A stretch of DNA of 64,000 nt, from contig JAIOPN010000062.1 in assembly GCA_021413865.1 (NCBI GenBank), positions 124,001 to 188,000 on the forward strand. The letters run 5' to 3'. Shown piece after piece: positions 36,053 to 38,179 of the stretch. Both the position numbers and the translations under genes were made by a program. A model generated the notes under the pieces. It saw only the letters and a list, made by a program, of their open reading frames with translations, searched no databases and was not told the origin of the DNA. Origin of the DNA: Planctomycetota bacterium (GTDB taxonomy: Bacteria > Planctomycetota > Phycisphaerae > Phycisphaerales > Phycisphaeraceae). Position 1 is the stretch's first letter. The number at the start of each line of letters is the position of its first letter.

Positions 36053-36739
36053 ATGGATACATTCCTTCAATTGTGGCATCTCGTCGTTCGCCTCTACAAT
36101 CTCTTCGCCCACTTGGACAAACACCTGCAGCAGGCCGTGACGGAGTATGGCCTTTGGGTGTACGCCATCCTCTTCGCCGTCATCTTCTGCGAGACCGGGC
36201 TGGTCATCCTGCCCTTCCTCCCGGGCGATTCGCTGCTCTTCCTCGTCGGCTCGCTGGCGGCCGCGGACAACAGCAACCTGAACATCTGGGTCGCGTTCGT
36301 CCTCCTCTTCGCCGCCGCGGTGCTGGGCGACACGGTGAATTACCACGTCGGCCATTACCTGGGCCCCAAGGTGCTCACGCGGCCCTCGGGCCGGTTCCTT
36401 AAGAAGGAGCACCTCGACCGCACGCACAAGTACTTCGAGAAATACGGCGGATCGACGATCATCCTCGCCCGGTTCGTGCCGATCGTGCGCACCTTCGCCC
36501 CGTTCGTCGCGGGCGTCGGGGCGATGACCTACTGGAAGTTCCTCACCTACAACGTCGTCGGGGCCGTGATCTGGGTCGGCCTGCTGCTCGCGGCGGGGCA
36601 CTGGTTCGGGCAGATGCAGTGGGTGAAGGACAACTTCGTCACCGTTGAGATCGCCATCATCGTGATCTCGCTCCTGCCCATGGGGGTGGAATACCTGCGG
36701 TTCCGCATGGATCAAAAGCGGGCGGAGAAGCAGCCATGA
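36053..36739 (+). CDS. DedA/SNARE-associated family membrane protein
   Basis: 228 residues with about five membrane segments. ETGLVILPFLPGDSLLFLVG and DTVNYHVGHYLGPKV in the N-terminal half, and FEKYGGSTIILARFVPIVRT with the family arginines in the middle, are standard DedA features. Homologues are lipid or small-molecule transporters involved in envelope homeostasis. Start is the ATG at 36053; the longer open frame to 35933 runs through the repeat after livF and is not used. The TGA overlaps the ATG of galE. Confidence 0.92.
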   Translation: MDTFLQLWHLVVRLYNLFAHLDKHLQQAVTEYGLWVYAILFAVIFCETGLVILPFLPGDSLLFLVGSLAAADNSNLNIWVAFVLLFAAAVLGDTVNYHVGHYLGPKVLTRPSGRFLKKEHLDRTHKYFEKYGGSTIILARFVPIVRTFAPFVAGVGAMTYWKFLTYNVVGAVIWVGLLLAAGHWFGQMQWVKDNFVTVEIAIIVISLLPMGVEYLRFRMDQKRAEKQP

Positions 36740-37728
36740 AAGTGCTCGTGACGGGCGGCGCGGGTTACATCGGTTCGCACGCGGTCAAGCGGCTGCTCGC
36801 CGCGGGGCACAAGGTCGTCGTGCTGGACAATCTCTTCCGCGGCCACCGCGAGGCCGTGCCGCAGGGCGTCCCCCTCGAGGAGATCGACCTCCGCAACACC
36901 GACGCCGTCACCAATACGCTGACGCACCACGCCATCGACTGCGTGATGCACTTCGCGGCGCTGGCGTACGTCGGCGAGTCCGTACAGCAGCCCCTCAACT
37001 ATTACGACAACAACACCGGCGGCACGGTCGGCCTCCTCACCGCCATGCGCCGCGCGGGCGTCCGCCGCATCGTCTTCAGCTCCACCTGCGCCACCTACGG
37101 CGAGCCCGAGAAGATGCCCATCACCGAGGAGACGCCCCAGCGCCCCATCAACCCCTACGGCTGGTCCAAGCTCTTCGTCGAACGCATCCTCCTGGACGAG
37201 GCGGCGGCGGACGCGAAGTTCTCCTTCGCGGCGCTGCGCTACTTCAACGTCGCCGGCTCGGCCGAGGACGGCTCGATCGGCGAGGACCACGCGCCCGAGA
37301 CGCACCTGATCCCCGTGCTGCTCAACGCCGCGCTGGGCAAGGTGCCCAAGGTGACGATCTTCGGGCAGGACTACCCCACGCCCGACGGCACGTGCGTGCG
37401 GGACTACATCCATGTGCAGGATCTGGCCGACGCCCACGCGATCGTGATGGACGCGCTGGCGCCGGGTGACAGGCGGTTCTACAACCTGGGCATCGGCCGG
37501 GGGCACAGCGTCCGCGAGGTGATCGACGCCGCAAAGAAGGTCACGGGTGTGGACTTCAAGGTGGAGACCGGCCCGCGGCGGCCGGGCGACCCACCCATGC
37601 TCTACGCCAACGCCGACAAGGTCCACCGCGAACTGGGCTGGAAGGCCAAACTGACCGACATCCACCACGTCACCGAAACCGCGTGGCGGTGGTTCAAGAA
37701 CCACCCGAACGGGTACCAGTCGCCGTGA
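36736..37728 (+). CDS. galE: UDP-glucose 4-epimerase
   Basis: 330 residues, normal length. NAD-binding GGAGYIGS at the start, active-site region FSSTCATYGEPE and PYGWSKLFVE (Tyr-xxx-Lys) and the sugar-binding NVAGS and RDYIHVQDLA are complete. It interconverts UDP-glucose and UDP-galactose in the cytoplasm for surface polysaccharides. Coupled by a four-base overlap to the DedA gene. A 34-bp inverted repeat pair follows. Confidence 0.95.
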   Translation: MKVLVTGGAGYIGSHAVKRLLAAGHKVVVLDNLFRGHREAVPQGVPLEEIDLRNTDAVTNTLTHHAIDCVMHFAALAYVGESVQQPLNYYDNNTGGTVGLLTAMRRAGVRRIVFSSTCATYGEPEKMPITEETPQRPINPYGWSKLFVERILLDEAAADAKFSFAALRYFNVAGSAEDGSIGEDHAPETHLIPVLLNAALGKVPKVTIFGQDYPTPDGTCVRDYIHVQDLADAHAIVMDALAPGDRRFYNLGIGRGHSVREVIDAAKKVTGVDFKVETGPRRPGDPPMLYANADKVHRELGWKAKLTDIHHVTETAWRWFKNHPNGYQSP

Positions 37729-37753: not shown

Positions 37754-37897
37754 GTAGGGTGCGTGGAGCGGAGCGCAACGCACCATTCCCGCGTACGACA
37801 AGACAGAAAAAACGCGCCGAGAAGGCCGCGAGACTCCACCCGTGTCGCGCAATCGTGAGCGTCAATGGTGCGTTGCGCTCCGCTCCACGCACCCTAC
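37754..37897. repeat. REPIN-like pair of exact 34-bp inverted repeats between convergent genes
   Basis: gtagggtgcgtggagcggag... at 37754-37787 is exactly inverted at 37864-37897 (34 of 34 bases), with a 76-base spacer. Each arm itself contains ggtgcgt/acgcacc ends, so each can also form a small hairpin. It lies between galE and the small acidic protein gene, which face each other, and could end transcription in both directions. The short open frame through it is not a credible gene. Confidence 0.85.
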
Positions 37898-37921: not shown

Positions 37922-38179
37922 TCAGCGTGCCGCATCGATCGCTCGCCGCAGGATTGTAGCGATCATCACCAGCAGGGCCGACGCGAACAGGCCGAGGATC
38001 AACCACACCATGATGCGGAAGCCGGCCCCGCGGTGCGGCATCCACTGGCTGGTTTTCGTTTCTTCGTCTTCACCGAGCGACTCGTCGTCGGTGAGTTCTT
38101 CTTCGAGCTCCTCGCCGATGCCCTCGTCGCTGATCTCTTCACCGTCATCCTTTTCCCAATCCGGTTCGTTGTCGTCCAT
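37922..38179 (-). CDS. Small acidic single-pass membrane protein
   Basis: 85 residues, not recognised. The first 45 residues are very acidic (runs of Glu and Asp), followed by a short polar link and one membrane segment (FRIMVWLILGLFASALLVMIA) near the end, then a basic tail. Predicted cytoplasmic acidic head anchored at the membrane. It starts 30 bases after the mreD stop, so it could belong to the elongation machinery, but nothing in the sequence proves this. Confidence 0.7.
   Translation of the reverse strand: MDDNEPDWEKDDGEEISDEGIGEELEEELTDDESLGEDEETKTSQWMPHRGAGFRIMVWLILGLFASALLVMIATILRRAIDAAR

What the first reader, a model, noticed from the sequence alone, without database searches (positions are those of the whole stretch)
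37754..37897. Exact 34-bp inverted repeats with a 76-base spacer between convergent genes
34 of 34 bases are inverted, each arm is itself part palindromic (ggtgcgt/acgcacc), and the pair lies at a convergent intergenic site. This is the layout of a REPIN, a pair of REP units that moves with the help of a RAYT transposase. No RAYT gene is in the window.
Basis: partly seen in the sequence, partly recalled or inferred. Interest (0 to 1): 0.6.

Follow-up and report, generated by a model that had tools for sequence, protein, structure and literature searches.

The report
REPIN: paired mobile hairpin repeat
The two mirror-image 34-base repeats are one copy of a family of small mobile hairpins (REPINs) scattered between this bacterium's genes, of a known kind; the enzyme that should copy them was not found in this draft genome, and a second, RNA-guided mobile element appears to use the same hairpins as landing sites.

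Summary
In detail: an exact 34/34 inverted repeat with a 76-base spacer, 25 and 24 bases from the stops of two convergent ORFs. It is a REPIN. The arm is a GTAG-tagged REP: GTAG, a 7-bp stem GGTGCGT/ACGCACC, an internal bulge, tags outward. The genome holds 45 places within 3 mismatches of the 28-base REP, control 0. I assembled 21 inverted pairs: arms 90% alike, spacers barely alike, mostly between convergent or co-directional genes. REPs with this stem type flank a classical RAYT gene in other genomes (7 of 15 RAYT-like loci inspected). No RAYT of that class was found in the window's own 95%-complete draft, so this is an orphan REPIN population or the RAYT sits in unassembled DNA. Two extras: a second REP family with the same bulge motif flanks an IS200-type tnpA, and its REPINs share both spacer edges with that unit. 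An IS110-family element joins REP arms at the CT of their CTAC foot, and its noncoding end carries bridge-RNA-like guides for that site. New member of a known kind.

The parts
37754..37787 (+). REPIN left arm: REP with GTAG tag (37754-37757), stem GGTGCGT (37758-37764) / ACGCACC (37778-37784), bulge GGA / A, small upper hairpin GCG-gag-CGC, tail ATT
37788..37863 (.). 76-base spacer, only weakly alike between copies of the family
37864..37897 (-). REPIN right arm: the same REP inverted, ending in CTAC (GTAG outward on the minus strand)
36736..37728 (+). upstream convergent gene, NAD-dependent epimerase family (Pfam PF01370, 204 bits)
37922..38179 (-). downstream convergent ORF, 85 aa, no Pfam match

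Best explanation
The feature is a REPIN: two REP units with a GTAG tag in head-to-head inverted orientation, a non-autonomous mobile hairpin. Proposed working: when the strand is single (for instance on the lagging-strand template) each arm folds into a GTAG-tagged hairpin with a mid-stem bulge, or the two arms pair into one 34-bp hairpin; a REP-associated tyrosine (HuH/Y1) transposase recognises tag and bulge, cuts nearby, and copies or moves the element into other extragenic sites. Copies persist mostly downstream of genes, where they do little harm and may act as a shared bidirectional mRNA 3' end. Shown: layout, fold, copy number, extragenic and 3'-end bias, arm-over-spacer conservation, and association of the same REP stem type with a RAYT class in other genomes. 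Inferred: recognition, cutting and movement here, and which transposase did it. No RAYT of the matching class is in the 95%-complete draft, so it has either been lost (orphan family) or lies in a repeat-broken gap.
For: Multi-copy: 25 exact 15-mers and 45 places at up to 3 mismatches of the 28-mer, reversed-pattern controls 0. 21 distinct inverted pairs from 60 own loci, 69-96 bases between the 28-mers; 42 arms with mean pairwise identity 0.904; spacers 0.639 against 0.589 for shuffled ones (87 against 8 of 210 pairs above 0.65); GTAG tag intact on 15 of 21 left and 17 of 21 right arms. Folds with unpaired GTAG and a 7-bp stem. By a G+C-by-codon-position heuristic, 9 convergent, 7 unidirectional, 1 divergent, 4 unclassified of 21. 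Cognate class: of 15 RAYT-like loci inspected, 7 carry GTAGGGTG-type REPs beside the gene, head-to-head for example in L194 and L202. The same REP core occurs in 24 stretches of named genomes: 15 labelled as Planctomycetota taxa, 8 from one unclassified MAG (RI_301), 1 Thioalkalivibrio; several are head-to-head pairs with short spacers.
Against: No match to the RAYT class profile in the own genome. The five Y1 hits in it are of other kinds: L026 is flanked by another REP family, L027/L028 are cut at contig ends beside a different repeat, L029 lies inside valS, L030 is cut. 0 of 120 relatives carry the REP at up to 3 mismatches of the 27-mer, so no empty-site comparison was possible. The copy number is small for a REP family. 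Arms can be conserved for reasons other than mobility, for instance as terminators.
Confidence: 0.92

Rival explanations
1. The pair is mainly a bidirectional transcription terminator or mRNA-stabilising hairpin kept by selection, and its mobility is long over (fossil REPIN).
For: Convergent site with 25 and 24 bases to the two stops; 9 of 17 classified copies convergent and 1 divergent; very stable fold; no RAYT of the class in the draft.
Against: No run of T follows the arms in the sequence read; perfect identity of both arms in 6 of 21 elements suggests young copies or correction between arms; a terminator does not need a GTAG tag or a conserved bulge.
Confidence: 0.2
2. The family is mobilised in trans by the IS200-type TnpA of L026 (C56), whose own flanking REPs (family B) share the GTAG tag and the GGAGCG...GCGCAA bulge but have a different stem.
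For: L026 is the only complete Y1 transposase gene with flanking GTAG REPs seen in the genome; family A and B REPs share tag and bulge; one family A arm at C4:189065-189102 carries a family-B-like long loop.
Against: In other genomes the family A stem goes with a different transposase class; in relatives the L026 type goes with CCACGGG stems (at least one such hairpin in 16 of 30 loci).
Confidence: 0.15
3. The inverted repeat is a local accident: inversion, assembly error or a chance palindrome.
For: None beyond the exactness of the arms.
Against: 25 exact copies, control 0; 21 inverted pairs at different loci.
Confidence: 0.01

Closest known systems
REPIN (Bertels & Rainey 2011, PMC3116915; passages read)
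   Same: Inverted REP doublet with conserved ends and a less conserved spacer, hairpin in single-stranded DNA, extragenic; element of similar size (71 bp between the invariant 16-mers of GI doublets there)
   Different: The own draft genome has no RAYT of the matching class; the family is small (21 pairs assembled, not exhaustive)
GTAG-tagged REP superfamily, HH dimers (PMC3733652; passages read)
   Same: GTAG tag, tags outside, spacers of 20-100 bp, convergent and unidirectional placement; that paper reports GTAG repeats in the PVC superphylum
   Different: The stem GGTGCG was not found in that paper's main text (0 occurrences); its figures and additional files were not read
E. coli-type REP/TnpAREP with mid-stem bulge (PMC8266576; passages read)
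   Same: GTAG plus imperfect stem with a bulge
   Different: Stem and bulge sequence differ; the cognate enzyme in this strain is not identified
IS621 / IS110-family bridge-RNA elements that target REPs (PMC11208160, passages read; PMC1525189, abstract and section list read)
   Same: For the element seen in passing: CT core, insertion at the CTAC foot of a REP, about 200-nt noncoding end with LTG/RTG-like guides
   Different: Recombinase and noncoding end are not joined in this assembly; the guide reading is by eye, backed by a homologous element in G071

Membership tests
REPIN | Two REPs in inverted orientation forming one hairpin | tested here: met
   34/34 inverted, -61 kcal/mol, z -11.8
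REPIN | Dispersed, multi-copy, extragenic | tested here: met
   (gene calls heuristic; 4 of 21 unclassified)
REPIN | Arms more conserved than spacer | tested here: met
   arms 0.904, spacers 0.639 (shuffled 0.589)
REPIN | REP type tied to a RAYT class whose gene is flanked by it | tested here: met
   7 of 15 loci with GTAGGGTG-type REPs, all in other genomes
REPIN | Cognate RAYT present in the same genome | tested here: inconclusive
   0 matches in G000; draft of 67 contigs, 95% complete, several contigs ending at REPs
REPIN | Transposition or excision observed | not testable with these tools
   no reads and no close strains held
GTAG REP | GT[AG]G tetranucleotide at the foot of a hairpin | tested here: met
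   GTAG on 15/21 left and 17/21 right arms
IS200/IS605 element | tnpA inside the repeat | tested here: not met
   no transposase between the arms; 76 bases only
Curated Rfam RNA family | Score above the gathering cut-off | tested here: not met
   best 48.9 bits against a cut-off of 168 (microRNA precursor models)

The most novel reading that the evidence does not exclude
A REPIN population that outlived its own RAYT and is now kept going in trans by an unrelated IS200-type TnpA whose REPs share the tag and bulge, while an IS110 element has had its bridge RNA naturally re-targeted to the CTAC foot of the same REPs, so that unrelated recombination systems meet on one 27-base hairpin.
Probability: 0.12. 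Interest if true: 0.65.

Novelty: new member of a known kind. Interest (0 to 1): 0.38.

Why it matters
As a REPIN it is ordinary in kind. It adds a family with a GGTGCG stem found mostly in Planctomycetota genomes and ties that stem to a RAYT class. The case is useful for two reasons: a REPIN family without a detectable RAYT tests whether such populations can persist or be borrowed by another Y1 enzyme, and the IS110 element beside it gives a natural pair of homologous bridge-RNA ends (G000 and G071) whose guide stretches differ where their target sites differ.

Tried and rejected
Rejected: chance palindrome or local inversion; Rfam RNA (microRNA hairpin models far below cut-off); plasmid-borne element (no match in 72,556 plasmid records by blastn); L026 as the evident cognate of this family (it goes with another stem; kept as a rival); L027/L028 as cognate (cut at the contig ends, and the flank read carries CTGACCCCTTTTCT instead). 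The family A spacers showed no blastn match at E 0.01 to the 30 loci, so, unlike family B, no descent of these REPINs from a REP-RAYT-REP unit could be shown. (loose pattern GTTGCGCN{2,30}GCTCCAC) was near or below its control in most relatives; only G000, G017 and G038 stand out clearly. The RNA fold of the 207-nt IS end is not more stable than shuffles (z -1.18), and the guide match was chosen after looking (of 20,000 mononucleotide shuffles, 907 have the LTG-like match, 86 also GTAG, 0 also ACAGCCG). Searches were earlier, cruder collections of the pairs, superseded; six arms had no partner within 7 mismatches. In one search I listed only stems of 7 or more plus GTAGGGTG-type ones, for 15 of the 30 loci (the strongest matches); 5 of the 15 (L199, L201, L204, L208, L209) showed no convincing flanking GTAG REP, 3 showed other GTAG REPs (L197, L198, L203). 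Not tested: empty sites (no genus-mate held), lineage of the window's genome.

Full report
OBSERVATION. The inverted repeat is exact over 34 bases (37754-37787 and 37864-37897) with 76 bases between. It lies 25 bases after the stop of an NAD-dependent epimerase gene (ends 37728, +) and 24 bases from the stop of an 85-aa minus-strand ORF (37922-38179), a convergent site. Each arm reads GTAG-GGTGCGT-GGA-GCG-gag-CGC-A-ACGCACC-ATT: an unpaired GTAG tag, a 7-bp stem, a bulge and a small upper hairpin. As single-stranded DNA the whole element folds at -61 kcal/mol, z -11.8.

COPIES. The genome (G000, 4.37 Mb in 67 contigs, 95% complete) has 25 exact copies of GGTGCGTTGCGCTCC and 45 places within 3 mismatches of the 28-mer; the reversed-pattern control is 0 in both. 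From 60 own loci, 21 distinct head-to-head pairs were assembled (not exhaustive, arms within 8 mismatches and less than 260 bases apart). The 42 arms have mean pairwise identity 0.904; six elements have identical arms. Spacers are 69-96 bases between the 28-mers and only weakly alike (mean 0.639 against 0.589 shuffled; 87 against 8 of 210 pairs above 0.65). The GTAG tag is intact on 15 of 21 left and 17 of 21 right arms; two of the left exceptions (C43, C56) are junctions with an insertion sequence. With a codon-position G+C heuristic, 9 copies lie between convergent, 7 between co-directional and 1 between divergent genes; 4 were unclassified.

WHICH TRANSPOSASE. Y1_Tnp (PF01797) finds five places in the own genome. 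L026 (C56, 150 aa) scores as IS200/IS605 transposase in NCBIfam (85 bits, cut-off 55) and only 19.6 bits (cut-off 80) as RAYT. It sits between two inverted REPs of another family, B: GTAG-CCACGGGT-GGAGCG...GCGCAA-CCCGTGG. Family B has 10 exact arms in the genome, including three REPIN pairs. Their spacers of 120-122 bases match both inner edges of the 576-base REP-tnpA-REP unit (blastn E 1.4e-4 or better for both edges in two, 8e-12 and 0.02 in the third): family B REPINs look like internal-deletion derivatives of that unit. L026-type genes occur in 21 of 121 genomes searched, own included; of 30 loci read, 16 have at least one GTAG-CCACGGG hairpin and 12 have GTAG hairpins on both sides (exact stems only, counted from the listing).

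The family A stem goes with another enzyme. A scan of named genomes for GTAGGGTGCGTGGAGCN{2,32}AACGCACC gave 24 stretches: 15 labelled as Planctomycetota taxa, 8 from the unclassified MAG RI_301, one Thioalkalivibrio. In L139 two such REPs, head to head, enclose a classical RAYT gene; a second RAYT (L185) lies between GTAGGGTGTGT REPs. With these two as a profile, 14 of 15 genomes searched have a match at E 0.01, 11 of them above 180 bits; the one without is the window's own genome. Of 15 RAYT-like loci inspected, 7 have GTAGGGTG-type REPs beside the gene, 3 other GTAG REPs, 5 none. In G038, listed as the same family as the window's genome, the pair is GTAG-GGTGGGT with the same GGAGCG...GCGCAA bulge. 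Twelve of these genomes were chosen because they carry the REP and two (G017, G038) because, so the association is not a blind sample.

MECHANISM. Work on E. coli TnpAREP shows that the GTAG tag and the mid-stem bulge of a single-stranded REP matter to the enzyme, with cleavage at a CT beside the hairpin (PMC8266576, passages), and REP doublets are argued to be the mobile unit in P. fluorescens (PMC3116915, passages). The anatomy here fits that. For this strain, recognition and movement are inferred.

AN INSERTION SEQUENCE THAT TARGETS THE SAME ARMS. Contigs C30, C43 and C56 start with the same sequence (151-209 nt) joined to a REP arm at one and the same base; C21 has the same end at a non-REP GCACCCT. 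Read on the other strand the junction is CACGCACC-CT|TGTATGTTCG, where the intact REP has CACGCACC-CT-AC. A PF02371 recombinase fragment opens contig C25 and its downstream end reads ACACAGCCG-CT-ACC. In G071, a one-contig genome, a 70%-identical recombinase is present in seven identical copies; their element starts CT|TGTATGTTCG and ends ACACAGCCG|CT, the same ends as in the own genome, with a noncoding end 77% identical over 168 nt. In the alignment two differing stretches stand out: one holds ACGCACCC in G000 against TCCCCCT in G071, the other GTAG against GGGAAAG. They fit the targets CACGCACC-CT-AC and CCC-CT-(C/T)(T/C)CCC respectively. In the minimum-energy fold of G000 they lie on opposite sides of one stem-loop. 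This is what IS110 bridge RNAs do (PMC11208160, passages), and insertion of insertion sequences into REPs is long known (PMC1525189, abstract). The assignment of guides is by eye.

KNOWN OR NEW. REPINs, GTAG REPs in the PVC superphylum and REP-targeting insertion sequences are all in print. The string GGTGCG has no occurrence in the main text of PMC3733652 or PMC6006769; figures and supplements were not read. I file this as a new member of a known kind.

Noticed in passing
own genome contigs C30:1-207, C43:3-209, C56:1-151, C21:1-151 (L092-L095); C25:1-640 (L106); homologues L224, L236, L238, L240-L243: An IS110-family element joins REP arms exactly at the CT of their CTAC foot; its noncoding end holds ACGCACCC and GTAG, matching the REP target as bridge-RNA guides would. 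The homologous element in G071 has the same ends but different guide stretches and different targets.
   Followed up: partly
own genome C4:23310-23576 (L029): A Y1 transposase ORF lies in frame inside valS, giving one open frame of 1222 aa, with GAGCCACGACCGT-like repeats at both sides of the insert as read from the translation. Whether another intact valS exists was not tested.
   Followed up: partly
own genome C56:3855-4502 and C4:197048-197239, C13:159966-160158, C41:6965-7164: A second REP family (GTAG-CCACGGGT) flanks an IS200-type tnpA; its three REPIN pairs share both inner edges with the tnpA unit, as internal-deletion derivatives would.
   Followed up: yes
L145, L146, L148, L155, L158, L160, L162 (MAG records RI_301 and bin120): The same REP core forms head-to-head pairs with spacers of only 11-24 bases in other genomes, so the arm is kept while spacer length changes by lineage.
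   Followed up: partly
own genome C64:1-489 and C6:1-489 (L027, L028): Two near-identical RAYT-like genes each cut by a contig end, with CTGACCCCTTTTCT in their upstream flank instead of a GTAG REP.
   Followed up: no
own genome C19 end (L013) and C5 start (L086): The same transposase-like 3' end lies inside a REPIN spacer in C19 and just beside a REPIN in C5; it looks like IS630 from memory, not tested by a tool.
   Followed up: no
own genome C4:110095-110122 (L047): A single REP whose two halves form a palindrome with GTAG/CTAC at both feet (a 'double foot' REP), possibly the result of a central deletion of a REPIN (the term is used in PMC6006769).
   Followed up: no
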